A DNA stretch of 64,000 nt. Origin: a bacterium (GTDB taxonomy: Bacteria; UBP15; UBA6099). The stretch lies in contig JAKQPS010000113.1 of NCBI GenBank assembly GCA_029564595.1, positions 1-64,000 on the forward strand, read 5' to 3'. The notes beneath the pieces are model-generated. The model saw nothing but the letters and a program-made list of their open reading frames with translations. It had not been told where the DNA came from and searched no databases. The position numbers and the translations under genes are program-made. This document shows, piece by piece, positions 10,498 through 38,515 of the stretch; the first letter of the stretch is position 1, and each line of letters opens with the position of its first letter.

Positions 10498-11958
10498 TCA
10501 GTCTTTCACTTCGGACAAAGGAATGCACAGAGCGTCCGCCACGCCTTTTCCGTAGTCGGAATCCGCTTTCAGGCAGTTTCCGATGTGGCGAATTTTAATT
10601 TCCTTGGGAGCGTCGCCCATCGCTCGCGCGGTGTTTCCGAAGAGAGCCTGTTTCTGCTCGTCGGACATCAGCCTGAAGAGGAGTCCGGGCTGGCTGTAGT
10701 AATCGTCGTCTTCTCTGTGGTTCCAGTGATCCGCCGCGCCTTCGAGGGAGAGAGGCGGCTCGGAAAAATCAGGCTGCTCCTGCCATTCGCCATAGCTGTT
10801 CGGCTCGTAGCCGAGCAGACTTCCGTAATTGCCGTCAACTCTCATCGAGCCGTCTCGATGAAAACTGTGATACGGACACCGGGAAGCGTTCACTGGAATC
10901 TGATGATGGTTCACTCCGAGGCGGTATCTGTGCGCGTCGCCGTATGAGAACAAGCGCCCCTGCAACATCTTGTCCGGCGAAAAGCCTATTCCCGGAACTA
11001 TGCTTGCCGGGTTGAACGCAGACTGCTCCACTTCCGCGAAATAGTTCTCCGGGTTGCGGTTCAGTTCGAGTTCGCCGACCTCGATCATAGGGTAATCCTT
11101 GTGAAACCATACTTTTGTTAGATCAAACGGGTTGTAAGGGCAGTTCGCCGCTTCCTTCTCCGGCATGACCTGAATGAACATCGTCCATTTCGGGAAATCG
11201 CCTTTTTCAATGCTCTCGTAAAGGTCGCGCTGATGGCTCTCCCTGTCCTTAGCCACAATCGCTTCGGCTTCGGCGTCGGTAATGTTCTTAATCCCCTGTT
11301 TGCTCTTGAGGTGGAACTTCACCCAGAACCTTTCATTCTTCGCATTGATCAAGCTGAAAGTGTGGCTGCCGAAACCGTGCATGTGGCGGTAGGTCGCCGG
11401 AATGCCTCTGTCGCTCATCACGATGGTTACTTGATGCAGGGCTTCTGGCAGAAGCGTCCAGAAATCCCAGTTGTTCTTGGCGCTGCGCAAGTTCGTGCGC
11501 GGGTCTCGTTTCACCGCGTGGTTGAGGTCGGGAAACTTCAGAGGGTCGCGCAGAAAAAACACCGGAGTGTTGTTTCCGACGAGGTCCCAGTTGCCCTCCT
11601 CGGTATAGAACTTGATGGCGAAACCTCTGATGTCTCTTTCGGCGTCCGCCGCGCCTCTCTCGCCGGCGACCGTTGAAAACCTTATGAAAAGGTCGGTCTT
11701 CTTTCCTATCTGCGAAAAAATCTTGGCCTTGGTGTATCCGGCGATGTCGTGGGTTGTCGTGAAGGTTCCGTAAGCGCCCGAACCTTTCGCGTGCATACGC
11801 CGCTCCGGAATAACCTCTCTGTCGAAGTGCGCCAGCTTCTCAAGGAACCACACATCCTGCAAAAGCATCGGTCCTCTTCGGCCTGCGGTCAGCACGTTCT
11901 GATTGTCCGCGACCGGCGCTCCCGTCGTTGTCGTCAACTTCTTTTTCTTATCTTCCAT
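10498..11958 (-). CDS. katA: heme catalase (monofunctional, small-subunit clade)
   Basis: Hydrogen peroxide dismutase of 486 residues, the size of small-subunit catalases. The distal His is His56 in [14 protein letters not shown], followed by [10 protein letters not shown]. The distal Asn lies in [11 protein letters not shown], and the proximal heme Tyr in [14 protein letters not shown]. Other family blocks ([16 protein letters not shown]) are intact. There is no signal peptide, so it is cytoplasmic. The gene is monocistronic, ends at the bidirectional terminator and has a 261-bp AT-rich leader in which I did not find a convincing PerR or Fur box. Its presence implies exposure to oxygen despite several anaerobic-type enzymes nearby. 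Confidence 0.97.
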
Positions 11959-12219: not shown

Positions 12220-13653
12220 TTAGCGTGTCGAAGGGCCTCGCTCGCGTTTCTTCGGAAATATTATCCTGAACGCTCTCTGAAATATTATTTTCAGTTGTGT
12301 GAATGAATGAATTTCCCGCGCGATTCCCAACATTATCTTAGGTCGCAGATAGAATCTGAAATGCGAATTCCTCTGTAGTTTTATCAAATCTTTTTCCGGG
12401 ATCGAGTCGTCGCAATAACCGAGGTTGTGGATATAAAGCTCGTCGTAATCGAGGTTGTCCAGTTTTCCCGCGACTTTAAGCTCGTCGTAAATCTCGCTGC
12501 CGGGGAATGGGGTGAATGTAAAAAAGTTCACTCTGTTGATGTCGAGTTTCAGAGAAAGATTTATTGTTTCTCGCATCTCTTGAACAGTCTCGCCGGGATA
12601 GCCCAATATAAAAAGCCCAGTGCTTCTTATGCCGTGTTTTTTCAGGATGGCGATTTTTTCGGGGACTTCATTAAGGTTGATCCGTTTTTTCATCAGATTG
12701 AGAACGCGCTGCGAGCCGGACTCTATTCCAAGAGAAGTCGAGTAACAGCCCGCGCGTTTCATCGCAGATATCAGTTCGTCAGAAATGCAGTCGATTCTAA
12801 TGCCGGGAGGACAGCCCCAGACCACATCTGTATTTCTGCGGATAATCGTCTCGCAGACCTTCATGGCGAATTTTGCGTCCGCCGCGAAATTGTCGTCCAT
12901 TATTTGAATCTCGTGGATATCATGATCTTTTTTAAGGAGTGTCATCTCGTCCACAATCGAGTCTGGGTCGCGGTGGCGGAGTTTTTTTCCCATAGCGACG
13001 CCCGCGGCGCAAAATCTGCATGAATAGGGACATCCGCGCGTGGTGATGAGCGGCGCAACTTTGTTTTTTTTCGTGAATATTCCGTTCGGATACAGTGAAA
13101 ACTTTTTGGGATCGTGAAGGTCCCACGCCGGAAGATCAAGCGGGCGGATATCGTCAATAAGTTTGCGTTTCGTCAGCGCCGCGCCCTGCCCGTCTCGGTA
13201 GCAGAGGTTCGGAATCGCGGACAGAGAGGAAGCGTCGGGAGTTTCTTTCTTCTCAAGTTCCGCTAACAACAGAGGGAATGTTTCTTCGCCTTCGCCGGAG
13301 ACGACATAGTCGACATCGGGCATTTTATTGAGGATTTCTTCAGACTCGAAAATAGCGTGAGGCCCGCCCGCGACGATTCTAGCTCTCGGATATTTGCGTC
13401 TTATCTCTTGCGCGTACACTGCCGAAGAATTGAAAAACGGGGTAAATATTGTGATCCCGACCACATCGAAATTGTTCTCTGAGGCTATGTCGGCGACTTT
13501 TTCGGGCTTGATGGAATCTCTGGCGGCGTTGCAGATGAAAGGTTCGTGTCCGGCGCGCCTTAGAGCGGTCGCCAAGTATGCTAGTCCCAGATTGGGAATT
13601 ATCAGATATGTCTCTAGATTCAGCCTTTTTGGATCGACAAGTAATATCTTCAT
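12220..13653 (-). CDS. B12-binding-type radical SAM protein
   Basis: Radical SAM enzyme of 477 residues. The N-terminal 130 residues have the cobalamin-binding-domain fold pattern of class B radical SAM enzymes (ILLVDPKR, NLGLAYLATALRRAGHE, VVGITIFTPF, GGPHAIFESE, VVSGEGEETF). The cluster motif CPYSCRFC gives Cys208, Cys212 and Cys215, followed by DDNFAADAKFA and SLGIESGSQRVLNLMKK, typical of this class. Such enzymes methylate or rearrange unactivated carbons, often in lipids, antibiotics or pigments. It is the last gene of a three-gene run, 21 nt after its neighbour. The substrate is not determinable; see the operon finding. Confidence 0.88.
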   Translation of the reverse strand: MKILLVDPKRLNLETYLIIPNLGLAYLATALRRAGHEPFICNAARDSIKPEKVADIASENNFDVVGITIFTPFFNSSAVYAQEIRRKYPRARIVAGGPHAIFESEEILNKMPDVDYVVSGEGEETFPLLLAELEKKETPDASSLSAIPNLCYRDGQGAALTKRKLIDDIRPLDLPAWDLHDPKKFSLYPNGIFTKKNKVAPLITTRGCPYSCRFCAAGVAMGKKLRHRDPDSIVDEMTLLKKDHDIHEIQIMDDNFAADAKFAMKVCETIIRRNTDVVWGCPPGIRIDCISDELISAMKRAGCYSTSLGIESGSQRVLNLMKKRINLNEVPEKIAILKKHGIRSTGLFILGYPGETVQEMRETINLSLKLDINRVNFFTFTPFPGSEIYDELKVAGKLDNLDYDELYIHNLGYCDDSIPEKDLIKLQRNSHFRFYLRPKIMLGIAREIHSFTQLKIIFQRAFRIIFPKKRERGPSTR

Positions 13654-13674
13654 TAAATAACCCGATGAGCAGTC

Positions 13675-15168
13675 TCAGCCTTTGACGCCCCGCCCTGTGA
13701 AAAATTCCTTCAAATAGAATTTATACCTTTTTGCGTGCTGACGCATCATTATTTCCGCGTCAGGCGATTTCTTCATCAACAGCCTGTACGCGGTGTACGC
13801 GATTCCCGGCAGAAAAGATGTCGGCAGCAACCTGTACAGGCGTTTGTTTATTATCGTTTCAACGAGGCCGCGCGGAAGAACCTGAGTCAGCACATAAAGT
13901 ATGTAGAACTTCCTGTGCAACTTCGGCGAAGCGTTGTCTATCGTTATCGAGCCGACATGCTCTCCGGCGTCGATTTTTTTCAGGTCCGATTCGTTCAGCG
14001 CGCCATGCCTGAGCGCGATGTTAATTATCTCCGTGCCGGGAAAATAGCGCAACCAGAAAACCTTCAGCACATCCGGGCGCGTCTCGTTGTAGAACCGGGC
14101 CATCTCGACCATGTCAGATTCCGATTCCGTCGGGAAATTTGCAATATTCTCCGCTGCGACGAATATCCCTGTTTCCTGCAATAACCGTATAGAGCGACGG
14201 ATTATTTCCGTGGATTCGGTCCGATTGTAAATCTCGCGGCGTTTCTTTTCGTTTATGGTCTGAACGCCGATATCGACTTTTACGCAGCCTGATTCGCGCA
14301 GCAGAGCCGCATGCTCTTCGTCAACCATGTTCGGGTTGGCGCAAGCTATATAGGGCAAGCCTATCCTTTTCTTGTACTCCTGCGCAAACTCGCGCATCCA
14401 TTCTTTCTTCGCGCCGAAAACCTCGTCGTAAAAATTCACGTGTCTGGAGTCGTATGTTTTCACGGCCATGGAAAGCTCTTCAATCACGTTCGCCACGCTT
14501 CTGGTTCTGACGTAGCCTTTCGCGCCGTAAAGTTTTTTCATCAGGTCGTTGTTGCAGAAAGTGCATCTGTACGGACAACCTCTTGAAGCCATGATGGTGT
14601 AGATATCGGAGGCGTTGACAGGAGTGTCGGCGTAAAGTGTTTTATCGGGAAAAGGAAGGGAATCCAAATCCTGAATGAGGGGTCGAAGAGGATTGAGGCG
14701 CGGAACGCCGTCAATATTGACGCAGACATTATCGATATCCGGACGTATGCCGCCGTGTTCGATGGAATCGAGAATGTCCGCAATGACGAGGTCGCCCTCG
14801 CCCCTGACGACAGCGTCGACGCAATCGAGTTTAAGAAACTCTTCCGGGGCGGAAGTGGCGTGGATATTGCCCGCGATGACGCGAGCGCCTGTTTCGGCCT
14901 TAATCAGAGCCGCCATCTCCTTGAACCAAAGGAAATCGCTCGTGACCACCGAAAACGCCACGACGTCAGGCTTAAGCGCGGCGACCTTTTCGACCACTTT
15001 CTTCTTCATCCTGAACAGCCGCGCGAGAGGCCGGATGGTGACGAAAGAATCCTCAAACAGGCAAGGGTCGAAAACCAGCCCCGCCGAATGGCCCTTCGCG
15101 CGAGCCATCGCCGCCAGACTCTCTATTGCAAGGCTCCCGAAAGCAGGATATACGAACGCCACTTTCAT
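13675..15168 (-). CDS. B12-binding-type radical SAM protein
   Basis: Second class B radical SAM enzyme of the run, 497 residues. The N-terminal cobalamin-type domain (VAFVYPAFGSLAIESLAAMA, VVAFSVVTSDF, VIAGNIHATSAPE, AVVRGEGD) is followed by CPYRCTFC with Cys198, Cys202 and Cys205. The middle contains DIGVQTINEKKRREIYNR and the common NFPTESE turn. A C-terminal extension of about 120 residues (HRKFYILYVL, FLPGIAYTAYRLLMKK) is hydrophobic and could associate with the membrane. Its start codon overlaps the stop of the upstream radical SAM gene by 4 bp (ATGA), so the two are translationally coupled. It is paralogous to, but clearly diverged from, the gene at 12220. Confidence 0.88.
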   Translation of the reverse strand: MKVAFVYPAFGSLAIESLAAMARAKGHSAGLVFDPCLFEDSFVTIRPLARLFRMKKKVVEKVAALKPDVVAFSVVTSDFLWFKEMAALIKAETGARVIAGNIHATSAPEEFLKLDCVDAVVRGEGDLVIADILDSIEHGGIRPDIDNVCVNIDGVPRLNPLRPLIQDLDSLPFPDKTLYADTPVNASDIYTIMASRGCPYRCTFCNNDLMKKLYGAKGYVRTRSVANVIEELSMAVKTYDSRHVNFYDEVFGAKKEWMREFAQEYKKRIGLPYIACANPNMVDEEHAALLRESGCVKVDIGVQTINEKKRREIYNRTESTEIIRRSIRLLQETGIFVAAENIANFPTESESDMVEMARFYNETRPDVLKVFWLRYFPGTEIINIALRHGALNESDLKKIDAGEHVGSITIDNASPKLHRKFYILYVLTQVLPRGLVETIINKRLYRLLPTSFLPGIAYTAYRLLMKKSPDAEIMMRQHAKRYKFYLKEFFTGRGVKG

Positions 15169-16511
15169 TCAGTCTCCGCGCCGCGCGGCGTCCGCGCGTC
15201 CTTCGTGTCGCCCTTCGGCAACCACGACATCTCCCTGTATTTCGTGTTGTAAATGCAAGGAGGTATGTAGCCCTCGTCTGACATGTAAACTTTGTTGCAG
15301 CAATTCGCTTCCGTCAGGTCGATAGTGTCGCGCGCCCTGAACTCCTCTATCGTAAACAGTTTAACCTCGCCTGTCATCTGAATCGCGTCCCAATGGCGAA
15401 GCGAGCCGAAAAGCGCCGCGAGCCTCGCAAGCCCTCCCGCGTTAGCGACTGCCCCTGCCGGATCGAAATACCTGTTCACCGGAATATAATCTTTTCCCCG
15501 TTTGTGAAGAAGCAACATGTGAAAGCATGATTTCTGCTGAAAATCCCTGTTGCCAGTCAACCGAAAAACAATATTGCCGATGGCGCGCGACCGCATGAAA
15601 TCCTTCACGGCAATACGCCCCCGCGTTCCGGCTTCGACGGCTTTCATGACATCCAACGCGGTAGTTGCCCGCTCCGCGCCGAAATTGTCTCTCCCGACCG
15701 ACGACAACACTGTGCATCCAAGATGCATGATATTGTCGTTGCCCATCATGAAATCGACTATCTTGCCGATTTCCCCGTCGTTCACCCCTTTTGCGGCCAT
15801 ACATGCCAGACAGACTTTTATTCCCGCTTTTTCAAGAGAGGCTAAAGCCCTGCGTTTCGTCTCAAGAAGTTCCCTTCCCCTTGTGACTCTGTAAATATCG
15901 TCCGAAAAACCGTCGAACTGCAACAACGCCCAGCCAAGTCCGGCGTCCCGCAGGCTTCTTGCGTATGACTCGTCGGCAAGTTTGATTCCGTTGGTGGCGA
16001 CTTTCACGACGAATCCGAGCGCGGTGATTTTTCTTATAATTTCCGCAAGGTCCGGGCGCAGCGTCGGCTCTCCTCCGCAGATAAGGATAGTGGGCTTGTC
16101 CTTCAATTTTTTGAGTCTTGAGACTATCTCGTCTGCGGAAGGCTCCCTGCTCTTTCGCGAATGAGTGTTTGTGAAACATGCGGGACAATTCAAATCGCAT
16201 CTCTCAGTGACATCGATCATAATTGTCTTTATGCGCCCGAGGTGCCGCTCGCATCCCAGACACCCTTCAATGTCGCATTCGTGAAATTCACGGGGAACGC
16301 CCGATGTTCCGGACAAGCACTTCTTGAAAAAAGCCGGATCGTCGTGAATGACGAACTCGAAACCGCCGTGCGCCGGACATTGTTTGACTTGAATGACGCG
16401 CCCTTCCCGCTCGATTATGCGCGCGGGAATTATGCCTCCGCACTCAGGGCAAAGACTCTTTGTTTCTCTGATGAGTTGTCCGCCGGAGCGATCCGCCAAG
16501 TTCAGCGCCAC
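15165..16511 (-). CDS. radical SAM protein of the tetraether-lipid-synthase-like (COG1964) type
   Basis: Radical SAM enzyme of 448 residues. The N-terminus carries a rubredoxin-like pair CPEC (21-24) and CPAHGGF (45-51), then cysteines 79, 84 and 87. The SAM cluster is ERCDLNCPACF (Cys105, Cys109, Cys112), followed by GGEPTLRPDL. The C-terminus has ANCCNKVY and GYIPPCIYN. This layout (N-terminal CxxC/CxxHG, three-cysteine core, terminal CC and IPxCxYN) matches what I know of Tes, which couples lipid tails in archaeal tetraethers, and its bacterial relatives. Assignment to lipid coupling is inference. The GTG start at 16511 has no obvious ribosome site, so the N-terminus is less certain. First gene of the run. 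Confidence 0.8.
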   Translation of the reverse strand: MALNLADRSGGQLIRETKSLCPECGGIIPARIIEREGRVIQVKQCPAHGGFEFVIHDDPAFFKKCLSGTSGVPREFHECDIEGCLGCERHLGRIKTIMIDVTERCDLNCPACFTNTHSRKSREPSADEIVSRLKKLKDKPTILICGGEPTLRPDLAEIIRKITALGFVVKVATNGIKLADESYARSLRDAGLGWALLQFDGFSDDIYRVTRGRELLETKRRALASLEKAGIKVCLACMAAKGVNDGEIGKIVDFMMGNDNIMHLGCTVLSSVGRDNFGAERATTALDVMKAVEAGTRGRIAVKDFMRSRAIGNIVFRLTGNRDFQQKSCFHMLLLHKRGKDYIPVNRYFDPAGAVANAGGLARLAALFGSLRHWDAIQMTGEVKLFTIEEFRARDTIDLTEANCCNKVYMSDEGYIPPCIYNTKYREMSWLPKGDTKDARTPRGAETE

Positions 16512-16619
16512 ATTTCTAAATTTATAGTTTGATTATAGCAGTATTAAATTTGTTTTGTCGATTTACGACTGTTTCCTCATAAGCTCACGTCCGACATTAC
16601 TATGTGAACAAAAAGAGAA

Positions 16620-16650
16620 AAAGAGGCCCGCGACAATCGCGAGCCTCTTT
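16620..16650 (-). terminator. rho-independent terminator downstream of hcp
   Basis: Outer 8-bp stem (16620-16627 with 16643-16650), one mismatch, inner 5-bp stem and 3-nt loop. On the minus strand it is followed by a T-rich run, placing it about 85 nt after the hcp stop. Confidence 0.8.
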
Positions 16651-16734
16651 TAATTCAAATCAGATGACAGCTTTCTTGTCTATTCGGCATTATCAATGCC
16701 AGACTCTATTCAGCGCAGCGCGACCCTAAGCGCG

Positions 16735-37174: not shown

Positions 37175-38515
37175 TCAATATCTCTGAAGAAGGCCGAAAG
37201 AGGCCGAATTGTCTTTCATAAAACTTTCCCAGCCTAACATGTAATAGAGATTGTCATTTATAGCTCGTCCGGCGCGGAGGTTCAATTGAAGGTCGTTCGG
37301 GTCGGATATCTCGCCTACGTAATAAGTTTTGTTTTTCTGATACTCGAACCCGCCGCCAAGCTTGCCGCTTTTGACGCCGAACTTGTACCACATGTCCGGC
37401 TTGAAACCTTTGACACCGAACTGCAGGTTGGACGTGCTGTTTTCTCCGAGGTCGTCGAATCCGAAAAGATAAAACACTTCGGAGTTAGGCGGGAACACCC
37501 GGACGTTCATGTCGGCGAAATACTTATCTTTCCTGCCCTCGTATCTAAGGCCGAAATCGGGTTTGAATTCTGTGGCGTTTATGGCGCGGATCATCTTGGT
37601 GAAACTGCTTGCCGCTTTGTCGGCGTTCTCCATCGTGGCTCGCGTAGTCTTTATCGTCTCGCGTATGTCCTGATTGATCTCGGTGTCGGTAACGAGGTCC
37701 CTGATCGCTCGCGTTGATTCCTCCACATGTTCCAGCGATTTTTTCAGCGTGTAAACGGTCTGCTTGATTTCGCTTTTGAAAAGCTCGTCTCCCACAATGT
37801 CTTCCGTGTGCAGAACCACGCGGTCAACATCGGTTATGAGCGTGTCAATTTTCAAAGAAGTAGCCTTGAGATTCTCCGTGATTATTCTGGCGTTTTCGAG
37901 AGTGTCGACAACCTTGCCGCTGCCTGTGTCGCCGGTTTGCCTGAGCGCTATAGTGAATTTCAGGGCTTCCTCGGTTATCATGCGGACATTCTCGGTGGTG
38001 GCGAAGATGTCGTTCTGAAGCCTCTCGCTCTCCATCATCACGCGGGTTTTTGCGAGTATCAGGTTCATCTCGGCGAGCGCTGTGTTTGCCTTGTCGATGA
38101 TATCCGGAACTGTGGCTGGAGACTTCGTTTCGCTGACGATATCGCCGTCTTTGAAATAGACGTAAGGAGGAGTGACGTTGGGTGGAGCCTCGATGTTGAG
38201 CACTTTGTCTTCGAGGAACCCGACTTTGATAGTAAAACTGGAGGTTTTATGAATCTTATATTTCTTTTCGATGCGAAGGTTGAGCATGACGTCGCCGTTG
38301 TCCATCAGTTCCATAGATTCGACCTTGCCGATGCTGATGCCTGAAAGCCAGACGGCGTTGCCCGCGCCGAGGCCCTGAACGTTGGAGAACACGGCTTTAA
38401 GCGTGTAGCTGTTATCGTTGTCGAGGCGCATTTCCTGAACGCGGTTGTAGCCTATGATCAGGATGGCGGCGGCGGCCAGAACGCCCGCGCCGACTTTGAA
38501 GTAATGAGTGAACAT
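37175..38515 (-). CDS. mlaD: MlaD-family MCE protein with long coiled coil and beta-rich C-terminus
   Basis: 446 residues, much longer than the about 180 of enterobacterial MlaD. N-terminal membrane helix (VGAGVLAAAAILIIGYN), one MCE domain (about 38-115, with VQGLGAGNAVWLSGI and VGFLEDKVLNIEAPP), a long helical region (about 150-320) and a beta-strand-rich end (about 330-446: FGLRYEGRKDKYF, LQFGVKGF, LGGGFEYQ) finishing in LLQRY. The end resembles an outer-membrane barrel strand pattern. I infer a protein reaching from inner to outer membrane for lipid transport. It abuts mlaF (TAA directly followed by ATG). Confidence 0.88.
   Translation of the reverse strand: MFTHYFKVGAGVLAAAAILIIGYNRVQEMRLDNDNSYTLKAVFSNVQGLGAGNAVWLSGISIGKVESMELMDNGDVMLNLRIEKKYKIHKTSSFTIKVGFLEDKVLNIEAPPNVTPPYVYFKDGDIVSETKSPATVPDIIDKANTALAEMNLILAKTRVMMESERLQNDIFATTENVRMITEEALKFTIALRQTGDTGSGKVVDTLENARIITENLKATSLKIDTLITDVDRVVLHTEDIVGDELFKSEIKQTVYTLKKSLEHVEESTRAIRDLVTDTEINQDIRETIKTTRATMENADKAASSFTKMIRAINATEFKPDFGLRYEGRKDKYFADMNVRVFPPNSEVFYLFGFDDLGENSTSNLQFGVKGFKPDMWYKFGVKSGKLGGGFEYQKNKTYYVGEISDPNDLQLNLRAGRAINDNLYYMLGWESFMKDNSASFGLLQRY

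What the first reader, a model, noticed from the sequence alone, without database searches (positions are those of the whole stretch)
12220..16511. Operon of a tetraether-synthase-like radical SAM enzyme and two B12-type radical SAM enzymes
The sequence shows three consecutive radical SAM genes, the first two overlapping by 4 bp. The first has the N-terminal rubredoxin-like pair, CxxxCxxC core and C-terminal CC/IPxCxYN blocks of the Tes family; the other two have cobalamin-type N-terminal domains like the enzymes that methylate or cyclise lipid tails (for example GrsA/GrsB, HpnP/HpnR). Together they could couple and modify lipid chains, giving membrane-spanning or branched tetraether-like lipids in a bacterium. 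The coupling chemistry is inference; other products are possible.
Basis: partly seen in the sequence, partly recalled or inferred. Interest (0 to 1): 0.8.

Follow-up and report, generated by a model that had tools for sequence, protein, structure and literature searches.

The report
Tes-like operon with two B12-SAM enzymes
An uncultured bacterium carries a real three-gene operon of radical enzymes whose first member resembles, but is not, the archaeal enzyme that stitches membrane lipid tails together; the same partners recur in another phylum, so they probably modify one shared, most likely greasy, molecule that is still unknown.

Summary
Three adjacent radical SAM genes (T 15165-16511, B1 13675-15168, B2 12220-13653, minus strand) form one transcription unit under purifying selection. 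T has the whole Tes fold (best PDB match MjTes, Z 39, 410 of 448 residues; next MoaA, Z 21) and the cysteine/histidine ligand sets. B1 and B2 have a B12-binding plus radical SAM architecture. In a maximum-likelihood tree T falls outside the Tes clade, in a separate bacterial clade (99/96 support), and scores far below the curated Tes and TrsS cut-offs. The labile Met439 cluster ligand of Tes is replaced by an invariant Glu389, and the helical lipid-pocket insert is about half as long. No two-domain Ger/PlsA-like protein was found in the genome, so "tetraether" is unsupported. The trio is not a local accident: T+B1 persists in another family of the order, and in a different phylum T-clade genes sit beside relatives of B1 and B2 (one locus has all three). 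Most likely T couples or functionalises unactivated carbons of a long-chain, membrane-associated substrate that B1/B2 methylate or cyclise. The product is unknown; a non-lipid product is not excluded.

The parts
15165..16511 (-). T: Tes-fold radical SAM protein, 448 aa, GTG start
13675..15168 (-). B1: B12-binding/radical SAM protein, 497 aa; overlaps T by 4 bp; helical C-terminus
12220..13653 (-). B2: B12-binding/radical SAM protein, 477 aa; 21 bp after B1
16368..16451 (-). T rubredoxin-type motif C21-x2-C24-x20-C45-x2-H48, same spacing as MjTes
   Evidence: MjTes motif from PMC9433317
16242..16277 (-). T predicted N-terminal auxiliary [4Fe-4S] ligands C79, C84, C87, H90
   Evidence: compare
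16176..16199 (-). T radical SAM motif C105xxxC109xxC112
15525..15527 (-). T Cys329, predicted C-terminal cluster ligand
15345..15347 (-). T Glu389, invariant in the seven T-clade rows of A2, at the place of the labile Met439 ligand of MjTes
15255..15299 (-). T Cys405, Tyr409, Cys419 (C-terminal cluster and Tyr459 equivalents)
14554..14577 (-). B1 radical SAM motif C198xxxC202xxC205
13009..13032 (-). B2 radical SAM motif C208xxxC212xxC215
16532..16561 (-). sigma-70-like promoter site before T (TCGACA-18-TATAAT)
   Evidence: consensus match only
16619..16651 (-). intrinsic terminator of the upstream hydroxylamine reductase gene, isolating the operon

Best explanation
The trio is one operon whose enzymes act on a single, probably long-chain and membrane-associated substrate. 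T is a Tes-fold radical SAM enzyme: it would take a hydrogen atom from an unactivated aliphatic carbon and hold the carbon on its C-terminal [4Fe-4S] cluster until a second carbon (or a sulfur) is joined, as MjTes does. B1, its constant partner within the order, and B2 would methylate the same chain or close rings in it with B12 and SAM. Shown here: the genes and operon layout, selection, predicted fold, ligand pattern, separate clade, and recurrent linkage of T with B1- and B2-type genes. Inferred: the chemistry, the order of steps and the substrate. A tetraether product in particular is not indicated.
For: Full-length structural match to MjTes, Z 39.4, 410 residues aligned, against 20.8 for the next family. 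Rubredoxin spacing identical to MjTes, and the ligands of all three clusters present. T+B1 kept adjacent at 58/65% identity in another family of the order. B2 relatives that sit beside T-clade genes in another phylum fall in the same starred clade as window B2 (SH-aLRT 96), and T-adjacent B1 relatives in the B1 clade (SH-aLRT 95); one locus holds two T genes, a B1-type and a B2-type gene (L187). 10 of 12 T-clade loci have a B12-radical-SAM gene within 5 kb, although about one in ten would be expected from the density of such genes. B1 ends in hydrophobic helices. Glycosyltransferase-type neighbours (PMT_2, GT2) of the kind that use lipid-linked sugars lie near several T-clade loci.
Against: T is outside the Tes clade, and the wider family includes TrsS-like proteins of unknown, perhaps non-lipid function. 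The helical insert that forms the second lipid pocket of MjTes is about half as long. Some T-clade members lack the N-terminal cluster ligands, and G294 has lost two C-terminal cysteines, so function may vary within the clade. No acyl-lipid gene is part of the operon, and the window's neighbours are housekeeping genes. Two T-clade loci (G041, G389:C118) have no B12-radical-SAM neighbour. B2 is on another contig in G005.
Confidence: 0.45

Rival explanations
1. T is functionally a true bacterial Tes: it condenses the omega ends of two acyl or alkyl chains into membrane-spanning lipids, and B1/B2 add methyl branches or rings, giving brGDGT-like lipids.
For: Tes fold and cofactor set; bacterial Tes homologues have been proposed for brGDGT synthesis (PMC8941075); anaerobic bacteria make such lipids by other routes (PMC13274423).
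Against: Outside the Tes clade, which already contains a separate bacterial branch; shortened lipid pocket and Met439 replaced; no two-domain Ger/PlsA-like protein in the window genome.
Confidence: 0.2
2. The trio modifies a lipid-linked glycan or polyprenyl/glycolipid carrier rather than the bulk membrane lipid.
For: GT2 and PMT_2-type glycosyltransferases lie near T-clade loci L159, L160, L161, L188 and L189 in other genomes; the G006 B2 relative follows a sugar-transferase-like gene (by eye).
Against: No glycosyltransferase is near the trio in the window or in G003; distances in the other phylum are often 3-6 kb and such genes are common.
Confidence: 0.15
3. The trio matures a peptide (RiPP) or makes a small specialised metabolite or cofactor; the resemblance to Tes is only of fold.
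For: The nearest fold relatives after Tes are MoaA and SPASM peptide maturases; a His-Xaa-Ser RiPP system (HxsB, HxsC, HxsD relatives) lies 3-10 kb from T-B1 in G005; B1 resembles MgmA, CysS and TsrM, which act on proteins, carrier-bound acyl groups and amino acids.
Against: No precursor peptide gene was noticed in the operon; the Hxs genes are not near the trio in G000 or G003; the whole Tes C-terminal domain is kept.
Confidence: 0.2

Closest known systems
Tes / GDGT-MAS (MJ0619; NCBIfam NF045702; PDB 7TOL/7TOM)
   Same: Full-length fold, rubredoxin-type N-terminus with identical spacing, RS motif, N- and C-terminal auxiliary cluster ligands, Tyr459 equivalent.
   Different: Separate bacterial clade; 198 bits against a cut-off of 450; Met439 replaced by Glu389; helical insert about half as long; sits in an operon with two B12-radical-SAM genes, unlike 78 of 79 other Tes-type loci examined.
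TrsS, radical SAM (seleno)protein (NCBIfam NF045646)
   Same: Similar length; best-scoring curated model for T (216 bits).
   Different: Far below the 490-bit cut-off; TrsS-like rows form another clade.
B12-dependent radical SAM enzymes (MgmA, CysS, OxsB, TsrM, BchE, HpnJ) and the relative AprD4
   Same: B1 and B2 share the B12-binding Rossmann plus radical SAM architecture; B1 model Z 25-27 to MgmA, CysS, AprD4, OxsB, TsrM.
   Different: No curated equivalog cut-off is reached; window B1 and B2 belong to their own clades.
Gms, GMGT synthase (PMC11186832)
   Same: Another radical SAM C-C coupling enzyme of lipid chains.
   Different: Described as structurally close to SuiB, with the cap on the opposite side from Tes; not compared with T by sequence here.

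Membership tests
Tes (tetraether lipid synthase) | Rubredoxin-type site C-x2-C-x20-C-x2-H | tested here: met
   C21, C24, C45, H48
Tes (tetraether lipid synthase) | N-terminal [4Fe-4S] ligands (Mj C73, C77, C80, conserved His) | tested here: met
   C79, C84, C87, H90 in T (one residue longer spacing); absent in several other T-clade members
Tes (tetraether lipid synthase) | Radical SAM CX3CX2C | tested here: met
   C105, C109, C112
Tes (tetraether lipid synthase) | C-terminal cluster with labile Met439 (reported invariant in 1,000 archaeal homologues) | tested here: not met
   Cys positions C329, C405, C419 kept, Met439 column is Glu389
Tes (tetraether lipid synthase) | Falls in the Tes clade | tested here: not met
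   IQ-TREE: archaeal and most bacterial Tes form a clade (97/92), T lies in another (99/96)
Tes (tetraether lipid synthase) | Curated NCBIfam cut-off (450 bits) | tested here: not met
   198 bits
Tes (tetraether lipid synthase) | Same overall fold | tested here: met
   7TOL Z 39.4, rmsd 3.0, 410 residues (alignment fed to AlphaFold included Tes rows)
Tes (tetraether lipid synthase) | Couples two lipid tails | not testable with these tools
   needs biochemistry
TrsS | Curated NCBIfam cut-off (490 bits) | tested here: not met
   216 bits
Cobalamin-dependent radical SAM enzymes (B1, B2) | B12-binding domain plus radical SAM domain | tested here: met
   PF02310 and PF04055 above gathering scores
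Cobalamin-dependent radical SAM enzymes (B1, B2) | Actually binds cobalamin | not testable with these tools
   needs protein; AprD4, a near relative by fold, is from general knowledge thought not to need cobalamin
HpnJ, HpnR, BchE, ladderane B12-rSAM equivalogs | Curated cut-offs | tested here: not met
   best BchE 201 of 481 bits (B2); B1 BchE 102.9 of 481, HpnJ 95.6 of 577.6
GrsA/GrsB | Common clade with B1 or B2 | not tested
   no GrsA/B sequence was at hand
Mss | Common clade with T | not tested
   no Mss sequence or model was at hand

The most novel reading that the evidence does not exclude
T, B1 and B2 are the core of an unrecognised bacterial pathway, present in several uncultured phyla, in which a Tes-fold enzyme of a new clade couples aliphatic chains that B12-radical-SAM partners methylate or cyclise, giving a new class of membrane lipid or lipid-linked molecule.
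Probability: 0.25. Interest if true: 0.8.

Novelty: new variant of a known kind. Interest (0 to 1): 0.5.

Why it matters
The bacterial enzymes behind many environmental branched and cyclised membrane-spanning lipids are still only partly known, and Tes relatives in bacteria have no proven function. A distinct bacterial Tes-fold clade with recurrent B12-radical-SAM partners is a small, self-contained set of genes that can be expressed and tested. It also warns that calling any bacterial Tes homologue a membrane-spanning lipid synthase, as gene surveys do, can be wrong: this one has clear Tes similarity yet lies outside the Tes clade.

Tried and rejected
Tes membership rejected by tree, cut-off and the Met439 column. 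TrsS membership rejected. Ether formation through a Ger/PlsA-like two-domain protein: not found in G000, G003, G005, G006, G041, G320, G388, G389, while frames of 1149-1516 aa with two BcrAD_BadFG stretches occur in G186, G386 and G294. Neighbour genes as a clue: the catalase next to B2 is absent in G003 and G001, so it is not part of the system; hydroxylamine reductase and argG are housekeeping. Plasmid relatives: only three weak partial hits. No Rfam family and no tRNA in the window. Literature search found no description of Tes relatives paired with B12-radical-SAM genes, within an open-access library only. No fold family other than Tes reached Z above 21 for T in the pdb_via list.

Full report
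What is there. Three radical SAM genes follow one another on the minus strand: T (15165-16511), B1 (13675-15168) and B2 (12220-13653). T and B1 overlap by 4 bp and B1-B2 are 21 bp apart. A 15-bp-stem terminator after the upstream hydroxylamine reductase gene (16651-16619) and a promoter-like site (16561-16532, 11 of 12 matches) make the trio a unit of its own (consensus matches only). Against the near-identical MAG "bacterium ADurb.Bin236" (G003) the genes are 96-98% identical in protein, without stops, and dN/dS computed from the NG86 values is 0.09, 0.05 and 0.09.

What T is. Pfam finds a radical SAM domain and the HMPTM zinc ribbon, named after MJ0619's older annotation. The best solved relative is MJ0619 itself, the tetraether lipid synthase (7TOL, phmmer 1.4e-52; profile 1e-86). 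The AlphaFold model (pLDDT 86, pTM 0.88) matches 7TOL over 410 residues with Z 39.4 and 3.0 A rmsd, while the next family, MoaA, reaches Z 20.8. The alignment given to AlphaFold contained Tes rows, so this is a check of fold, not independent proof of kinship. The rubredoxin-type site C21-x2-C24-x20-C45-x2-H48 has exactly the MjTes spacing (C9x2C12x20C33x2H36, PMC9433317). Ligands for the N-terminal cluster (C79, C84, C87, H90), the SAM cluster (C105, C109, C112) and the C-terminal cluster (C329, C405, C419) are present.

What T is not. NCBIfam scores are 216 bits for TrsS (cut-off 490) and 198 for Tes (cut-off 450). In an IQ-TREE of 61 family members T belongs to a bacterial clade of 13 rows (99/96), whose sister is a second bacterial group (100/97); archaeal Tes and most bacterial Tes form a different clade (97/92). 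Two features separate the clades: the labile ligand Met439 of MjTes, reported invariant in 1,000 archaeal homologues, is Glu389 and invariant in the seven rows of A2; and the helical stretch between the middle and last cluster cysteines, which builds the second lipid pocket in MjTes, is about half as long. MjTes M439A stays active, so the substitution alone does not exclude the chemistry.

What B1 and B2 are. Both have B12-binding and radical SAM domains above gathering score, but neither reaches a curated equivalog cut-off. The B1 model matches cobalamin enzymes and relatives (MgmA, CysS, AprD4, OxsB, TsrM) with Z 25-27; B1 ends in helices with hydrophobic faces. The genome holds about 39 genes matching B2 at E up to 0.001, so chance adjacency of such a gene has to be considered.

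Is the grouping more than chance? In the same genus the trio is intact in G003, and G001 has B2 and B1 up to a contig end. In G005, another family of the order, T and B1 are still adjacent (58% and 65% identity), while the B2 relative (66%) is on another contig. G006 has a contig that begins with a T-clade C-terminus. In a different phylum of seven held genomes all seven have T-clade genes. Counting loci, 10 of 12 T-clade loci have at least one B12-radical-SAM gene within 5 kb (G041 and G389:C118 do not). These genomes carry 13-68 such genes in 3.3-5.3 Mb, so about one locus in ten would be expected; under a uniform, independent model 10 of 12 has a probability under one in a million (my arithmetic), which is too optimistic because these genes cluster. 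Of 79 other Tes-type loci fetched, one had such a neighbour, but most are archaeal and probably poorer in these genes. Phylogeny adds weight: window B2 groups (SH-aLRT 96) with G005, G006 and two genes that sit beside T-clade genes in the other phylum; the B1 clade (SH-aLRT 95) also holds three T-adjacent genes, although paralogues within the order are closer to B1 than these are. One locus, G388:C292 (L187), has two T genes, a B1-type and a B2-type gene (42% identical to B2) within about 7 kb.

How it probably works. MjTes takes a hydrogen atom from the end of a saturated chain, keeps the carbon on a sulfur of its C-terminal cluster and joins it to a second carbon radical (PMC9433317). T keeps the parts needed for that sequence, so the best reading is radical functionalisation or coupling of unactivated carbons, with B1 as the closest partner and B2 as frequent partner that methylate or cyclise the same molecule. 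The hydrophobic C-terminus of B1 and the Tes fold of T favour a membrane-associated long-chain substrate. I put about 0.45 on this general reading. True omega-omega coupling to membrane-spanning lipids is a narrower claim (0.2); tetraethers specifically are not indicated because no two-domain Ger/PlsA-like protein was found in this genome, though other ether routes were not tested. Rivals are a lipid-linked glycan (PMT_2 and GT2 genes near several T-clade loci) and a peptide or small-molecule product (a His-Xaa-Ser system lies near T-B1 in G005).

Novelty. The parts are known in kind; the T clade, its Glu389 signature and its partnership with B12-radical-SAM enzymes were not found described in the open-access literature searched. 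I file it as a new variant of a known kind, without assigning it to Tes.

Noticed in passing
G000 genome; G041, G186, G320, G386-G389: Very large sets of B12-binding radical SAM genes: about 39 in this 4.4 Mb genome and 45-68 in genomes of the other phylum.
   Followed up: partly
window 10498-11958: A catalase gene lies between B2 and the acyl-CoA dehydrogenase gene here but is absent at this place in G003 and G001: a recent gain or loss.
   Followed up: partly
L022 1-7301 (G005:C37): A His-Xaa-Ser RiPP-type system: HxsB above cut-off, HxsC- and HxsD-like genes and three His/Ser/Asn-rich repeat proteins, 3-10 kb from T-B1.
   Followed up: partly
bacterium ADurb.Bin236 (literature, PMC5424206): The close relative of this genome is reported to encode an unusual SepRS with a ThrRS-type editing domain and a SepCysS operon.
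   Followed up: no
L161 7389-8774 (G294): A T-clade protein that has lost two of the three predicted C-terminal cluster cysteines, suggesting a different function within the clade.
   Followed up: no
L187 8023-10609 (G388:C292): Two T-clade genes in tandem, overlapping slightly, inside a cluster of several B12-radical-SAM genes.
   Followed up: partly
L186, L160 (G388:C398, G320:C27): A conserved four-gene block in the other phylum: B1-type gene, T, a further B12-radical-SAM gene, then another radical SAM gene.
   Followed up: partly
window 37175-38515: An MlaD-domain protein, consistent with an outer membrane lipid transport system.
   Followed up: no
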